This document shows positions 2,044 to 40,940 of a DNA stretch of 46,003 nucleotides, piece by piece. The notes under the pieces are model-generated. The model saw only the letters and a program-made list of their open reading frames with translations, was not told the origin of the DNA and made no database searches. Each line of letters begins with the position of its first letter. Positions within the stretch are counted from its first letter, which is position 1. The translations under genes and the position numbers were made by a program. The DNA comes from Rhodocyclales bacterium RIFCSPLOWO2_02_FULL_63_24 (GTDB taxonomy: Bacteria; Pseudomonadota; Gammaproteobacteria; Burkholderiales; Rhodocyclaceae): the NCBI GenBank assembly GCA_001828935.1, contig MHZX01000050.1:1-46003 (forward strand). The letters run 5' to 3'.

Positions 2044-2657
2044 AATTCAGGCCTGTCACTGAAAATACTGAGCATTTGCGATAACTCGACCGCGGAGCGG
2101 ACTTCCATTTTGTCGAAAATACGGGAACGATGGACTTCCACGGTGCGCATGGCTATGCCTAATTCGTCGGCGATGATCTTATTCAACTTGCCGGCCAGAA
2201 TCCTTTGCATGACTTCCTGCTCGCGCTGCGTAAGCTGCGCCAGTTTTTGCTCCAACAGCAGGACCGAATTTTCTTTTGTATTCCGTTTCGCGTCATGTTC
2301 CATCGCAGCTACGACTTTGTCGACAAGTGCGTTGTCGTCGTAAGGCTTCTCGATGAAGTCGAAGGCGCCGTCCTTTAAGGCCTGAACTGCCATGGGCACA
2401 TCGCCGTGCCCTGTTAAAAAAATTACCGGCAGACGGCAATGCAAAACCCGCAACCGGTCGAACAACTCAATGCCGCTCATTCCCGGCATCCGCACATCCA
2501 GCAGCAGACAGCCGCAGAGGTTCCGGCTCACGAACGCCAGAAAATCGCCGGCCGAGTTCCACGTATTCGACGGCACGCCGCGAGATTGCAACAGCCACTG
2601 CAGGGCATCGCGCACCGCTGGATCATCATCGACAATATGCGTCGTGGCTCCGCTCAT
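2040..2657 (-). CDS. dctR: FixJ/DctR-type response regulator of the dicarboxylate system
   Basis: Two-component response regulator of 205 residues. The receiver domain has the acidic cluster D10-D12, the phosphoacceptor D54 (LLLDVRMPGMSG), T82 and K104 (FIEKPYD). A LuxR/FixJ-type helix-turn-helix at about 135-200 includes LTQREQEVMQ and a recognition segment around IADELGIAMRTVEVHRSRI. The start overlaps the end of the upstream kinase gene by 4 nt, so the two are translated as a pair. Its position beside dctPQM, and resemblance to the DctS/DctR pair of dicarboxylate TRAP systems, suggests it activates the transporter in response to C4-dicarboxylates. The ligand and target are inferred from context. 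Confidence 0.9.
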   Translation of the reverse strand: MSGATTHIVDDDPAVRDALQWLLQSRGVPSNTWNSAGDFLAFVSRNLCGCLLLDVRMPGMSGIELFDRLRVLHCRLPVIFLTGHGDVPMAVQALKDGAFDFIEKPYDDNALVDKVVAAMEHDAKRNTKENSVLLLEQKLAQLTQREQEVMQRILAGKLNKIIADELGIAMRTVEVHRSRIFDKMEVRSAVELSQMLSIFSDRPEF

Positions 2658-4621
2658 TGGTGTGCCATGGGCAAAAGAATGTGGAACACCGTACCTCCTC
2701 CCACATTGGCCTCGAATGAAAGGCGACCCCGGTGATTTTCCACCACCGAACGGCAGATTGCCAGCCCCATGCCCATGCCTTCTGCCTTGGTTGTGAACAA
2801 CGGATCAAATAGTTTGTCGGCGACACCGGCGTCTATGCCACAGCCGCGATCGGCAATCGTCAGCAGGGCATATTGGTCTGCGCATGTAAGCCTGATGTCG
2901 ATTTGCCGTTGGTGGATGGGAGTATCCCGCATCGACTCCACCGCGTTGCGGAAGAGGTTGAACAGCGCCTGTTCGAGCAGCACCGGATCACCTTCAATGG
3001 ACGGCTGGGCCTGCAGGTCAAGAGTAACGCGGATGCCTTTCTGGCGAATTTCACCTTCCATCTGAGCCAGGGCTGCGTCGATTCTTTCGCCGAGACGGAT
3101 CGACTCGAAGCGATCTTCGCTATGTCGGGCAAGATTGTAGATACGGCGGATGACTTGTCCGGCACGCCGGGCCTGTTCTACCGCCTTGTCAAGCGCCGGG
3201 ACAACTTCCGCGGGTGGCGCGTCATTGCGCAGCAGATTGACGGCCCCGGTGCAGTAGCTCGAGATGGCTGCCAGAGGCTGGTTCAACTCATGCGCGATAC
3301 TGGACGCCATTTCACCCATGGCGACAAGACGCGCAGTGGACTGCAGACGATCCTGCTGCTGGCGCGCGCGCTCTTCAGCCTGCTTTCGCTCTGTGATATC
3401 GACCATCGAGCCCATCCATCCGGAATGTCGCCCGTGGGCATCGATCAAAGGAGCTTCGTGAATCAGGACGTCGATGACTTCGCCGTTACGACGCTTGAGC
3501 TTTAGTTCAAAACCCTCTTCAGGTCCTTCCCCGGCCAGGACGCGATCATGAATGGCGAGGGTTGCGTCGAGATAATCGTCCGCCCAGTAGGGCATAGGCG
3601 GGTGGCGACCGATCAGCTCTTCCGCGGACCAGCCGACCATGCGACAAAAGGCCGGGTTTACGTAGATGATTTCGCCATCCAGGTTTCGAGCTCGCATGCC
3701 GGTGTCGAGAGAGTCTTCCATCGCCTTGCGAAAGGCATGCTCCTGTCGCAGTTGCTCTTCCACAGCCTGTCGACGCAGCACGTGGCGACGGAGAATCCAG
3801 AGACTCCATAGTACGATCGTGGCAAGGATGACCAGGCTGGCCGACAGCAAGGTACTGGCTAGCGGCCGTGGTGCATGGTAGGGCACCGCGTGTAGGGTAA
3901 GCCCCCATCCAGGAGGATCGAAAGCGACCTGGTAGCCTTCCTCGGTGACCGAGGATTCGATTTTCGATCGCGTTCCGAGTGCCTTGCCGGAATCCCCGAT
4001 TATGCTGATTCGATAGCGTTCGGCCAGCCACCACGGCACGCTGTCGCCGAGCAGATCCCGAATCCGGTAGACCCCAACCGCAACACCGACAATTCTGCCC
4101 TCGCGGGATACCGGGACGTGCACCTCGAATTGCCAGTCGTTCGTAAAAAAGGGATATGCAGCACTGTAAACAGGTTTTCCGAGCGACCGTGCGAGGCGAA
4201 AGCTCTGCCTGGATGGAGCGGCATCCATGGCATCGCCGACCAAATTGGGGTCCATGGTGATCGGATGGGCCAGCCGCACGGCTCCATCGTTGCCAAGCCA
4301 GATCAGTTGCCGAAGGCCGCTTTCGAAGCCAAACAAGGTGCGGGTGAAAGATTCGAAAGCCGCCGGGCTGGCGGTATGCGCCTGATCGATGCGGCCGAGC
4401 AATTCCTCGTTGCGGATCAGGTGAAATCGCAGATTCTGCTCCAGCCAGAGGATGTCGCTGATCAGTGTGGCGCGCCGTTCTTCCTTGTCGGCACGATCGG
4501 ACATCCAGAGCAGGAGGGCGACACCGCCGACAAACAGGATGAAGGCCAATCGTGGCAATATCCACAGCCAGCGCCAGCGGCTGATGCGTTCCCCGGATGG
4601 TAATGCCGTCGATAATCCCAT
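2654..4621 (-). CDS. dctS: DctS-like sensor histidine kinase with PAS domain
   Basis: Inner-membrane sensor kinase of 655 residues. Two transmembrane helices at about 20-40 and 258-278 enclose a periplasmic sensor region of about 215 residues, of the kind seen in dicarboxylate sensors DctB/DctS. A cytoplasmic PAS/PAC domain follows (about 298-415, ending SMVDITERKQ). The dimerisation/phosphoacceptor box AHELNQPLAAI has its histidine at 444. The ATPase domain has N-box LFRNAVES, G1 box DRGCGI and G2 box GMGMGLAIC. It overlaps the regulator gene by 4 nt and diverges from dctP across 147 nt. It probably senses a dicarboxylate outside the cell and phosphorylates D54 of the partner; the ligand itself is inferred. 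Confidence 0.9.
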   Translation of the reverse strand: MGLSTALPSGERISRWRWLWILPRLAFILFVGGVALLLWMSDRADKEERRATLISDILWLEQNLRFHLIRNEELLGRIDQAHTASPAAFESFTRTLFGFESGLRQLIWLGNDGAVRLAHPITMDPNLVGDAMDAAPSRQSFRLARSLGKPVYSAAYPFFTNDWQFEVHVPVSREGRIVGVAVGVYRIRDLLGDSVPWWLAERYRISIIGDSGKALGTRSKIESSVTEEGYQVAFDPPGWGLTLHAVPYHAPRPLASTLLSASLVILATIVLWSLWILRRHVLRRQAVEEQLRQEHAFRKAMEDSLDTGMRARNLDGEIIYVNPAFCRMVGWSAEELIGRHPPMPYWADDYLDATLAIHDRVLAGEGPEEGFELKLKRRNGEVIDVLIHEAPLIDAHGRHSGWMGSMVDITERKQAEERARQQQDRLQSTARLVAMGEMASSIAHELNQPLAAISSYCTGAVNLLRNDAPPAEVVPALDKAVEQARRAGQVIRRIYNLARHSEDRFESIRLGERIDAALAQMEGEIRQKGIRVTLDLQAQPSIEGDPVLLEQALFNLFRNAVESMRDTPIHQRQIDIRLTCADQYALLTIADRGCGIDAGVADKLFDPLFTTKAEGMGMGLAICRSVVENHRGRLSFEANVGGGTVFHILLPMAHQ

Positions 4622-8015: not shown

Positions 8016-8019
8016 ATTT

Positions 8020-8062
8020 ATGTCCGCAGCACCTCGCTGCGGACGGTATCCCTTGGCGGGAT
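8020..8062 (+). repeat. Single copy of the two-hairpin intergenic repeat (family A)
   Basis: This 43-nt stretch is a divergent copy of the 44-nt units at 35641-35728 and 40768-40899, read in the opposite orientation. It forms two adjacent stem-loops. The first has a 9-bp stem, GTCCGCAGC and GCTGCGGAC, with loop ACCTC. The second has a 5-bp stem, ATCCC and GGGAT, with loop TTGGC. The first stem differs in sequence from the other copies but keeps the fold. It lies in the ndk leader region, 42 nt before the ndk start, and downstream of the dctM terminator. Confidence 0.7.
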
Positions 8063-8104
8063 GTCTGACCAAAAACTGTAGCTCAACCTGTTCTGGAGAA
8101 AGTA

Positions 8105-35640: not shown

Positions 35641-35728
35641 ACAAATCCCACCAGGGGATATCGTCCTCGTCCGGAGGGACTCGGACATATCCCACCGGGG
35701 GATACCGTCCTCGTCCTGATGGACTCGG
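35641..35728 (-). repeat. Two tandem 44-nt two-hairpin repeats (family A)
   Basis: Units at 35641-35684 and 35685-35728. Read on the minus strand each has an outer stem GTCC/GGAC, a symmetric GA/GA internal loop, an inner stem GTCC/GGAC with a four-base loop (CTCC or ATCA), then a second hairpin ATCCC/GGGAT with a five-base loop. The array begins immediately after the T-run of the minus-strand terminator at 35733-35763 and ends just before the argD ribosome-binding site. Confidence 0.85.
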
Positions 35729-35732
35729 ACAT

Positions 35733-35763
35733 AAAAAAGGCCACGGGGTGAGCCGTGGCCTTT
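35733..35763 (-). terminator. Minus-strand terminator downstream of fic
   Basis: Read on the minus strand, AAAGGCCACGG and CCGTGGCCTTT form an 11-bp stem (35736-35746 with 35753-35763) and a six-base loop, followed by a run of T. It would stop transcription coming from fic before argD, leaving argD to use a separate promoter, possibly within the repeat array. Confidence 0.8.
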
Positions 35764-35923: not shown

Positions 35924-37093
35924 TCAGGAATGTTGGTTGGATTCCCGGTTCAGTATTTCCATGTACCCGGCGTAGCTGTAAATCCGCCCTCGCTTCTGGC
36001 CGGTGATTTCACAGACGATGCCCAATTCGATCAGCTTGCCCAACATCTTGGCGACGGTGTTGGGGCTTTGGGTCGTTCGCTCGCAGATGCCGGCGATCTG
36101 GCTGATCGGGCGGGCGTAGAGCGCGTGATGCACGAGCAGGGCCGAGGTAGCGAGGCGGCCGAGTTCGACTTGGATGCGCTGGCGGTCGGTAGCATGCAAT
36201 TCAGTAAGGGCGCGGGCGGTGGCGATGGCCTGATTGGCCGAGTCCGCGACGGCGGTGGCGAAGAACCACAGCCATTCCTCCCAGTCGCCTTGCTCGCGGG
36301 CGGTTTGCAGCAGTTCGTAATAGGTTTCGCGGTGGGTCTTGAAGTGCAGCGAAAGATAGAGCAGCGGCTCGCGCAAGATGCCTGCATTGACGAGGATGAG
36401 CGGGATCAGCAACCGGCCGAGGCGGCCGTTGCCATCGAGATAGGGGTGGATGGTCTCGAACTGCACATGGGACAGAGCGGCCTTGACGAGGGGCGTGTGT
36501 CGCTGCGGTTGGTCGTTGAGGAAGCGCTCGAGCGCTGAGAGGCATTCCGCCAGTCGTTGCGGTGGTGGCGGCACGAAGGCGGCGCGGGAGGGGCGGGCGC
36601 CGCCGATCCAGTTCTGGCTGCGGCGGATTTCCCCTGGCGACTTGCCTGCGCCGCGACCGTGGGCCATGAGCTTGCCGTGCATTTCGTTCATCAGCCGCAG
36701 GCAGATGGGCAGACCGCCGCGCAGCAGGCCGAGACCATGTTCGAGTGCGGCGACGTAGCAGGACACTTCCTGCACGTCGTCCAGCGGCACGCCAGGCGCG
36801 CCGTCGGCCTCATAGACCATCAGGTCGGCGAGAGAGGACTGGGTGCCCTCGATCTGCGAGGAAAGCACGGCTTCCTTGCGCACATAGCTATAGAGAAAGA
36901 CGGCGGTGTCCGGTAGCAGGACGCCGATGCTGTCGAGCCTGCCGAGGGCAAGCAGGGCTGCATCCAGTCGTTCTTGAAGCTCCGGTGAAAAGACCAGCGG
37001 CGGATCGGGCGGCAGCGACGCGGGCACGAAGGCGCGGCAGGTTTCGCCGCCTGCCGTGGAGATGTCATAGCTGCCGGTGAGTCCGCGTTTCAT
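35924..37093 (-). CDS. Fic family protein, class II with C-terminal winged helix
   Basis: A Fic-domain enzyme, a family that usually transfers AMP from ATP to a target hydroxyl. The active-site motif HPYLDGNGRLGR is at residues 216-227, complete with catalytic histidine. An N-terminal helix carries the inhibitory motif S78-x3-E82-G83 (SSQIEG), typical of self-inhibited class II Fic proteins. The C-terminal region (about 320-385) looks like a winged helix (SQIAGICERTTQSPNTVAKMLGKLIELG), which could bind DNA. I start at the ATG at 37093, giving 389 residues; the longer frame adds 23 residues from the promoter palindromes. No separate antitoxin gene is seen. The target is unknown. Confidence 0.9.
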   Translation of the reverse strand: MKRGLTGSYDISTAGGETCRAFVPASLPPDPPLVFSPELQERLDAALLALGRLDSIGVLLPDTAVFLYSYVRKEAVLSSQIEGTQSSLADLMVYEADGAPGVPLDDVQEVSCYVAALEHGLGLLRGGLPICLRLMNEMHGKLMAHGRGAGKSPGEIRRSQNWIGGARPSRAAFVPPPPQRLAECLSALERFLNDQPQRHTPLVKAALSHVQFETIHPYLDGNGRLGRLLIPLILVNAGILREPLLYLSLHFKTHRETYYELLQTAREQGDWEEWLWFFATAVADSANQAIATARALTELHATDRQRIQVELGRLATSALLVHHALYARPISQIAGICERTTQSPNTVAKMLGKLIELGIVCEITGQKRGRIYSYAGYMEILNRESNQHS

Positions 37094-37100
37094 GATGTGT

Positions 37101-37133
37101 TTCGTGCAATAAGAAATGGCGTTATTGCACGAA
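37101..37133. promoter_or_regulatory. Palindromic operator in the fic promoter, site 1
   Basis: A perfect 12-bp inverted repeat, TTCGTGCAATAA (37101-37112) and TTATTGCACGAA (37122-37133), with a 9-nt spacer, 8 nt upstream of the fic start. It shares the TGCAATA core with site 2. Its position between promoter and gene suits a repressor, perhaps the Fic protein's own winged-helix domain. Confidence 0.65.
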
Positions 37134-37143
37134 GTTGTGAAAT

Positions 37144-37170
37144 TTGCAATAAGACAAAGCACTATTGCAA
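37144..37170. promoter_or_regulatory. Palindromic operator in the fic promoter, site 2
   Basis: A perfect 8-bp inverted repeat, TTGCAATA (37144-37151) and TATTGCAA (37163-37170), with an 11-nt spacer, centred 40 nt from site 1. The shared TGCAATA half-site means one protein could bind both. Confidence 0.6.
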
Positions 37171-40767: not shown

Positions 40768-40899
40768 ACCCATCCCACGGGGGGATACCGTCCTCGCCCA
40801 GAGGGGCTCGGACATATCCCGCCAGGGGATACCGTCCTCGCCCAGAGGGACTCGGACATATCCCGCCAGGGGATACCGTCCTCGCCCAGAGGGACTCGG
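40768..40899 (-). repeat. Three tandem 44-nt two-hairpin repeats (family A)
   Basis: Units at 40768-40811, 40812-40855 and 40856-40899; the last two are identical and the first is divergent. Read on the minus strand, the inner stem is GCCC/GGGC in the first unit and GTCC/GGGC (one G-U pair) in the others, against GTCC/GGAC at 35641-35728: compensatory changes. The second hairpin is ATCCC/GGGAT in all. The array follows, on the minus strand, the T-run of the aceA terminator. Confidence 0.9.
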
Positions 40900-40901
40900 A
40901 C

Positions 40902-40940
40902 ATAAAAAATGCCGCACCGGTTTCCCGGTGCGGCATTTTT
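40902..40940 (-). terminator. Minus-strand terminator of aceA
   Basis: AAAAATGCCGCACCGG (40905-40920) and CCGGTGCGGCATTTTT (40925-40940) form a perfect 16-bp stem with a TTTC loop; the ends supply a T-run on either strand. It lies 20 nt after the aceA stop. Confidence 0.95.

What the first reader, a model, noticed from the sequence alone, without database searches (positions are those of the whole stretch)
40768..40899. Dispersed 44-nt element with two hairpins and compensatory base changes
Six copies at three loci (8020-8062 once; 35641-35728 twice; 40768-40899 three times). Read from the minus strand at the last two loci and plus at the first, each has a hairpin followed by a second ATCCC/GGGAT hairpin. 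In five copies the first hairpin has outer stem GTCC/GGAC, a symmetric GA/GA internal loop and an inner stem that varies as GCCC/GGGC, GTCC/GGGC or GTCC/GGAC. The ndk copy replaces it with a continuous 9-bp stem. Keeping the fold while sequence changes argues for selection on structure, as RNA or single-stranded DNA.
Basis: seen in the sequence. Interest (0 to 1): 0.72.

Follow-up and report, generated by a model that had tools for sequence, protein, structure and literature searches.

The report
Dispersed paired-hairpin repeat of Sulfuritalea
A 42-45-base DNA repeat made of two small hairpins is scattered through the genomes of one bacterial genus, is present or absent at exact places between sister species, and keeps the shape of its first hairpin while freely changing its letters, which looks like a tiny mobile element whose mover is unknown.

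Summary
They belong to a family with model matches in 31 of 31 genomes of the genus (named records: Sulfuritalea), 36 in the own genome and 4-54 per genome. A fixed pattern hit only one other genome among 300 of the order.

The unit is [TAT]GTCC-hairpin 1-GGACGG-TATCCC..GGGA(TAT). Hairpin 2 is nearly constant. Hairpin 1 has 122 distinct sequences, yet its free inner pairs form in 423 of 488 cells, against about 273 with shuffled arms. Orthologous empty sites show seamless, oriented insertion 3' of T-rich DNA, in a third of arrays directly behind a terminator-like T-run. Presence differs between sister species at all four sites examined. At one site the hairpin-1 type does not follow the tree.

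Best reading: a non-autonomous, REP-like miniature mobile element, probably moved as a folded single strand by an unidentified enzyme. It is not a canonical GTAG/RAYT or CGTC REP: no Y1 transposase was matched in the own genome, none of 30 Y1 loci read carries it nearby, and no replication-strand bias was seen. Selection on a cellular RNA is not shown; hairpin-templated correction is a live alternative.

The parts
8020..8062 (+). single copy, 43 nt, in the gap upstream of ndk; hairpin 1 is a continuous 9-bp stem (GTCCGCAGC/GCTGCGGAC)
   Evidence: read; R2 match 8018-8064 E 1.2e-11; no element at the orthologous place in 16 of 27 genomes with the locus
35689..35732 (-). copy 1 of a tandem pair, directly after a terminator-like hairpin and T-run, upstream of argD
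   Evidence: read; R2 E 2e-16; argD by NCBIfam
35645..35688 (-). copy 2 of the tandem pair (hairpin 1 GTCCGAGTCCCTCCGGACGAGGAC, GA instead of GG in the linker)
   Evidence: read; R2 E 3.1e-11
40860..40903 (-). copy 1 of a three-copy array after the isocitrate lyase terminator-like hairpin
   Evidence: R2 E 2e-16; isocitrate lyase by NCBIfam
40816..40859 (-). copy 2 of the array, identical to copy 1
   Evidence: R2 E 1.2e-6 for 40818-40857
40772..40815 (-). copy 3 of the array (inner stem GCCC/GGGC)
   Evidence: R2 E 3.6e-15
40904..40934 (-). terminator-like hairpin GCCGCACCGG-GAAA-CCGGTGCGGC plus T-run; the array starts at its T-run; the empty site in G002 is GGTGCGGCATTTTTTTGTGGGTTAG
35733..35760 (-). 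terminator-like hairpin GGCCACGG..CCGTGGCC plus T-run directly 5' of the tandem pair
   Evidence: read by eye

Best explanation
The element is a non-autonomous miniature mobile element of the REP-like kind, found almost only in one genus. Its unit is two adjacent hairpins: hairpin 1, read by shape (GTCC...GGAC foot, variable stem and loop), and hairpin 2, read by sequence (GGTATCCCCYGGYGGGAT). Shown: dispersal, seamless oriented insertion 3' of T-rich sites, tandem arrays in one orientation, presence and absence between sister species, and conservation of hairpin 1 as structure. Inferred: that the top strand folds as single-stranded DNA and is cut and rejoined next to its hairpins by an HUH/Y1-type enzyme (IS200/IS605-like logic), so that only copies with an intact hairpin 1 move and its letters drift freely; that arrays grow because the right end (GGGATAT) recreates a TAT entry site; and that losses occur by the same enzyme or by slippage between the flanking A/T repeats. 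Terminator T-runs and TATAAT-like sequence would simply be where TT/TTAT sites occur in a GC-rich genome. The mover was not found.
For: Family: 31 of 31 genus genomes. Structure: 423 of 488 free inner pair cells formed, against a shuffled-arm mean of 273 and a maximum of 303 in 2000; covariation score 0.204 against 0.064, 0 of 500 shuffles. Exact empty sites: ndk TTTAT^CTGATTAAT against TTTAT[GTTC..GGGATAT]CTGATCAAT (L168/L158), CGGTTAT^GATTATAGC (L064/L065), CTTTTAT^CG (L050/L041); GATTATAGCGA in 12 genomes against GATTAT[ATGTCC..GGGAT]AGCGA at the nucleotidyltransferase locus. Base 4 before GTCC is T in 101 of 123 arrays, TAT directly before GTCC in 110 of 123. Terminator-like hairpin plus T-run directly upstream in 32 of 60 arrays behind a co-oriented gene, against 1 of 36 behind an opposed gene, 9 of 27 others and 56 of 2460 random places. 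25 same-strand and 0 opposite-strand neighbour pairs within 300 bp among 146 copies. Patchy presence on a 4-locus tree: minimum changes 6 (ndk), 8 (nucleotidyltransferase), 4 (hup), 4 (aceA). Different elements at the same T-run of the aceA terminator in different species.
Against: No Y1_Tnp match in the own genome (36 copies) nor in G016 (99% complete, 35 copies) or G018 (99%, 7 copies). None of 30 Y1 loci fetched (of 45 matches) has the element within up to 1.5 kb. Hairpin 2 was not found without hairpin 1, so no longer autonomous copy with split ends was seen (4 of the 6 candidate places read). No replication-strand bias in the single-contig genome G002: 14 leading, 15 lagging of 29 loci (the copies at E<=1e-5), counted by hand. 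At ndk all filled species carry recognisably the same hairpin 1, which fits one old insertion followed by losses, not ongoing insertion. The tree rests on 1.5 kb, half of its inner branches are not firmly supported, and some presence states were set by hand. Losses alone, without recent movement, could explain ndk and hup, where presence follows the tree better than most shuffles (12 and 2 of 300).
Confidence: 0.62

Rival explanations
1. Functional RNA element: the hairpin pair is transcribed as a 3'-end stabiliser, attenuator or protein-binding site, and selection at each site keeps the fold.
For: Structure kept at a shared place: at hup 93.8% of cells paired against 88.2% shuffled (0/500), covariation 0.327 against 0.198 (0/500), with pair 7 seen as A-T, G.T and G-C and pair 8 as G-C, AxC and A-T in different species; 32 of 60 arrays behind a co-oriented gene sit at a terminator-like hairpin.
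Against: Present in some and absent in other species at all four sites examined; 42 of 123 arrays start directly behind a terminator-like T-run, where the upstream transcript should mostly end (inference); 36 of 124 arrays lie behind an opposed gene; units are not followed by a T-run of their own (by eye). Controls that do not exceed shuffles: at hup pairs with change on both sides 126/500 and pair types 466/500; at ndk pairs changed 83/500, pair types 236/500, cells paired 22/500, score 2/500.
Confidence: 0.15
2. Neutral relics with mutational correction: hairpins are kept tidy by template switching between their arms during replication (quasi-palindrome correction), and gain or loss is slippage between flanking TAT repeats; no selection and no longer any transposition.
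For: Compensated changes at hup and, more weakly, ndk; TAT-like repeats flank the unit at several sites; in L032 neighbouring copies have tips that are reverse complements of each other, GCCTCGCGGC and GCCGCGAGGC; no mover found.
Against: Does not explain dispersal or the nearly constant hairpin 2, nor different hairpin-1 types at one exact site in sister species with 92-94% identical flanks (G005 and G028).
Confidence: 0.15
3. A canonical REP family moved by one of the resident RAYT-like proteins (GTAG class) or a CGTC-class REP.
For: Size, mostly intergenic location (107 of 124 arrays by a home-made gene caller), palindromic form, patchy presence; 26 of 31 genomes have a Y1_Tnp match.
Against: No GTAG or CGTC tag at the hairpin foot; several RAYT-like loci carry other repeats in their flanks (GAGCCTGGCCCCTTT, AAATGACTCTGACCCCTTT, by eye); Y1 not matched in some genomes rich in copies.
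Confidence: 0.08

Closest known systems
CGTC-tagged REPs (Di Nocera et al. 2013, PMC3733652; abstract and found passages read)
   Same: Hairpin 2 has a stem beginning A-T and a 5-nt loop; short, mostly intergenic, dispersed, no dedicated transposase known.
   Different: Tag is CGGT instead of CGTC/TGTC/CCTC; stem 5-6 bp instead of 8-9; tail AT instead of CCA; an obligatory second, sequence-free hairpin; same-strand arrays (25 against 0 opposite-strand neighbour pairs) instead of mainly head-to-head dimers.
GTAG REPs / REPINs with RAYT (found passages of PMC8266576 read; other papers seen only in the search listing)
   Same: Small palindromes, dispersal, thought to be moved as single strands by Y1 enzymes.
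   Different: No GTAG; no copies found near the Y1 loci read; unit has two unlike hairpins in fixed order.
Non-autonomous derivatives of IS200/IS605 (mostly recalled; strand-specific ssDNA transposition and palindromic ends in passages of PMC8266576)
   Same: Hairpin near each end, no target duplication needed, insertion 3' of a short T-rich site, seamless empty sites.
   Different: No parent element found, no strand bias in G002, very short.
Whalefall-1 RNA, RF01762 (Rfam; found passages of PMC2864571 read)
   Same: A full-length but far sub-threshold match in the order hairpin 2 then hairpin 1, sharing GUAUC and GAGGAC (13.4 bits, E 0.37-0.72).
   Different: Gathering score is 37; not among the matches listed for L090 or L007, which carry the same element. 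Treated as chance.

Membership tests
GTAG REP with RAYT | unpaired GTAG (or near variant) at the hairpin foot | tested here: not met
   146 distinct copies; hairpin feet are GTCC/GGAC (136 of 146 exactly) and GGTATC
GTAG REP with RAYT | copies flank a RAYT gene | tested here: not met
   regex scan of 30 Y1_Tnp loci, up to 1.5 kb each side: 0 with the element; 30 of the 45 matches were fetched
CGTC REP | CGTC, TGTC or CCTC tag | tested here: not met
   the 4 nt before the ATCCC stem are CGGT in nearly all listed copies; the fetching patterns favour this
CGTC REP | A-T as first stem pairs, loop of 4-5 nt | tested here: met
   ATCCC-CYGGY-GGGAT
CGTC REP | stem of 8-9 bp and CCA tail | tested here: not met
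   stem 5-6 bp, right end AT/TAT
IS200/IS605-derived miniature element | seamless insertion 3' of a fixed short sequence | tested here: met
   empty sites at four loci clean to the base apart from point differences in the flanks; TAT before GTCC in 110 of 123 arrays; at the aceA terminator the site differs by 2 nt
IS200/IS605-derived miniature element | ends shared with an autonomous element that encodes TnpA | tested here: inconclusive
   none found at Y1 loci or by the split-end pattern; whole genomes not scanned exhaustively
IS200/IS605-derived miniature element | orientation bias to the lagging-strand template (recalled) | tested here: not met
   14 leading against 15 lagging of 29 loci in one single-contig genome, hand count
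any Rfam family | score above the curated threshold | tested here: not met
   whole window: only a tRNA
any of the above | single-stranded unit is bound and cut by the enzyme | not testable with these tools
   needs biochemistry

The most novel reading that the evidence does not exclude
A new class of structure-read miniature mobile DNA: an unknown enzyme recognises a sequence-constant hairpin plus a sequence-free hairpin whose shape alone licenses movement, and repeated exact excision and re-insertion swaps the hairpin-1 'identity' at fixed genomic sites faster than the flanking DNA changes. At the nucleotidyltransferase site the two hairpin-1 types need 6 changes on 14 species, a number no shuffle of 300 exceeded, and sister species G005 and G028 have flanks 92-94% identical but different types.
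Probability: 0.2. Interest if true: 0.7.

Novelty: new variant of a known kind. Interest (0 to 1): 0.5.

Why it matters
REP-like repeats without a known transposase (the CGTC class; PMC3733652) are a loose end of some standing. This family gives 20 genomes with 20-54 model matches each, one of them a single-contig genome, sites filled in one sister species and empty in the next, and a built-in separation between a part read by sequence and a part read by shape. That makes the question 'what moves them, and does it read structure' directly testable in a named genus. It also warns against reading covariation in dispersed hairpins as proof of a functional RNA.

Tried and rejected
Rejected: chance; a known RNA family (weak whalefall-1 matches were not among the matches for L007 or L090); movement by the resident RAYT-like genes; a split, longer parent element (6 places in 31 genomes; the script stopped after 4 of them, all full elements with a point change); a recurrent neighbouring gene as mover (the largest clusters of neighbouring genes hold 5-7 of 288 proteins and look like orthologous loci); insertion inside genes at L039/L061/L132 (no consistent reading frame; the element seems nested in another palindromic repeat). 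Viral contigs: 0 exact matches to the strict pattern. Model R1 was built and not used.

Limits: copies were fetched with patterns that fix the outer four pairs of hairpin 1 and most of hairpin 2, so only inner pairs are a free test. The gene caller is home-made; of 124 arrays 107 came out intergenic, 15 'inside' an ORF (13 of them opposed, many near a start or stop) and 2 partial. One array of 124 with under 60 bases upstream was left out of the counts. States for one search were partly set by hand from the sequences printed: at the nucleotidyltransferase locus seven further genomes were set filled and G021 dropped; at hup G004 and G016 were dropped as unclear; at aceA G007 was set empty. Genomes not in the 29-row tree (G013, G030) do not count there. 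For the hairpin-1 type test three degenerate filled copies (G011, G013, G017) of 17 were dropped. The ortholog search from the 35.6-kb locus gave few true orthologues and was not used. For print, the searches were (PMC open licences only); none of the listed papers is on this family by its title or abstract start.

Full report
What is there. The window holds six copies of a 43-44-nt unit at three places, as described. Read on its own strand the unit is ATGTCC-hairpin 1-GGAC-GG-TATCCC-loop-GGGAT. The neighbours were named with NCBIfam: ndk behind the first copy, argD behind the pair at 35.6 kb, and the array at 40.8 kb follows isocitrate lyase. The last two places begin directly at the T-run of a terminator-like hairpin.

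Family size. The own genome gives 36 matches to a covariance model (R2, built from 20 copies of one length class) at E<=0.001, and 20 at E<=1e-5 with stricter filters. All 31 genomes of the genus have matches, from 4 (G003) to 54 (G005); E-values of this model are rough. With a fixed pattern, one genome besides the own among 300 of the order has a hit, and with R2 one of the 67 other genera sampled in the family (G284, two matches). The Phycisphaeraceae hit (L105), and L147, lack hairpin 1 and are taken as chance.

Anatomy. From the loci then held, 146 distinct copies in 124 arrays were listed: 105 single, 16 double, 3 triple. Within 300 bp there are 25 same-strand pairs and no opposite-strand pair. 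Hairpin 2 is nearly constant: six sequences, led by GGTATCCCCTGGTGGGA, make 113 of 146, though the fetching patterns favour this. Hairpin 1 varies from 19 to 26 nt. Because the patterns fix its outer four pairs, only the inner pairs were tested: pairs 5-8 form in 423 of 488 cells over 122 distinct sequences, against a mean of 273 and a maximum of 303 in 2000 shuffles of arms between copies. On 20 copies of one length, six pairs show changes on both sides, covariation is 0.204 against 0.064 (0 of 500), and slid controls pair 37-54% of cells against 89%. In the single-contig genome G002 even the foot varies with compensation (GTCT/AGAC; GCCT/AGGC), and hairpin 2 has shorter structure-keeping forms.

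Insertion. Orthologous empty sites are clean: TTTAT^CTGATTAAT at ndk, CGGTTAT^GATTATAGC, CTTTTAT^CG, and GATTATAGCGA in 12 genomes against GATTAT[ATGTCC..GGGAT]AGCGA. The exact ends are ambiguous by up to 3 nt because both ends are A/T; no target duplication is needed. The base 4 before GTCC is T in 101 of 123 arrays, and TAT precedes GTCC in 110 of 123. A terminator-like hairpin with T-run lies directly upstream in 32 of 60 arrays behind a co-oriented gene, in 1 of 36 behind an opposed gene, in 9 of 27 others (42 of 123 in all), and in 56 of 2460 random places. At the aceA terminator the own genome has three copies, G024 one clear and one degenerate copy, and G020, G006 and (degenerate) G008 differently built ones, while G002, G010, G005 and G025, among others, are empty.

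Turnover. On a tree of 29 genomes from four loci (1523 columns; 13 of 26 inner branches well supported), the fewest presence/absence changes are ndk 6 (27 rows; 12 of 300 shuffles as low), nucleotidyltransferase 8 (28 rows; 76 of 300), hup 4 (22 rows; 2 of 300) and aceA 4 (28 rows; 81 of 300). So at hup and ndk presence is partly inherited; at the other two it hardly follows the tree. At ndk the filled species have recognisably the same hairpin 1, which fits one old insertion and several exact losses. At the nucleotidyltransferase site two hairpin-1 types (TGC-TCCT-GCA-like and CGC-GNNG-GCG-like) alternate across sister species: 6 changes on 14 rows, and no shuffle of 300 exceeds that. G005 and G028 have flanks 92% and 94% identical but different types. 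This fits independent insertions at one exact site, or replacement.

Compensation in place. At hup, nine hairpin-1 copies from eight species pair in 93.8% of cells against 88.2% shuffled (0 of 500), with three compensated pairs and visible intermediates; but the number of compensated pairs (126 of 500) and of pair types (466 of 500) is not above shuffles, I chose the nine of one length, and some may be independent insertions. At ndk (11 species) the excess is weaker: score 2 of 500, cells paired 22 of 500, compensated pairs 83 of 500.

What moves it. Y1_Tnp (PF01797) is matched in 26 of 31 genomes but not in the own one, nor in G016 and G018, which are 99% complete. None of 30 fetched Y1 loci has the element in its flanks, and several RAYT-like genes carry other repeats. 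In G002, with origin near 0 and terminus near 1.9 Mb by GC skew of sampled stretches, 14 loci run with the leading strand and 15 with the lagging strand (hand count). So the insertion logic resembles IS200/IS605 and REP elements, but the enzyme is unknown and two expected features were tested and not met.

Verdict. The structure is real and conserved; it is best explained as what a single-strand-reading mover requires, with hairpin-templated correction as a serious rival. A cellular RNA function is possible at single sites but is not needed for the pattern. It is filed as a new variant of REP-like miniature elements, not as a member of the GTAG or CGTC classes.

Noticed in passing
L366, L367, L373, L327, L333; also G002 around 2041274, 2222378, 3130558: A second dispersed palindromic repeat (GCTTTGCACGCCGGGGCTTCCGCTT-CGCGGGCCGGC and relatives). 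A short form of the present element sits inside its loop after CCGCTT (L366), and this repeat in turn sits inside hairpin 2 of another copy.
   Followed up: partly
L086, 8000-base locus, minus-strand coordinates 2264-3008 and orthologues: At the nucleotidyltransferase gene (murU-like by recall) the insertion falls at the stop codon: in L086 the ORF runs 15 codons through the element and reuses the TAA, adding a C-terminal tail.
   Followed up: partly
L185-L209: Several RAYT-like Y1 genes of about 247 aa in the genus have flanks with GAGCCTGGCCCCTTT or AAATGACTCTGACCCCTTT repeats, probably their own mobile repeats.
   Followed up: no
L032 array: Neighbouring copies have hairpin-1 tips that are reverse complements of each other (GCCTCGCGGC against GCCGCGAGGC), as if the tip had flipped.
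   Followed up: no
window 40790-40832 and 40834-40876, minus strand: Sub-threshold but full-length similarity to Whalefall-1 RNA (RF01762), sharing GUAUC and GAGGAC around two hairpins; that motif is reported only from whale-fall metagenomes in PMC2864571 (passage).
   Followed up: partly
L216 1498-1542 (G284, another genus of the family): A full copy in a genome of another genus, with one more weak match there; may mark the source or a transfer.
   Followed up: no
window 35924-37162, minus strand: Fic-type protein (NF046030, 153.5 bits, below its cut-off of 550) just upstream of the 35.6-kb pair.
   Followed up: no
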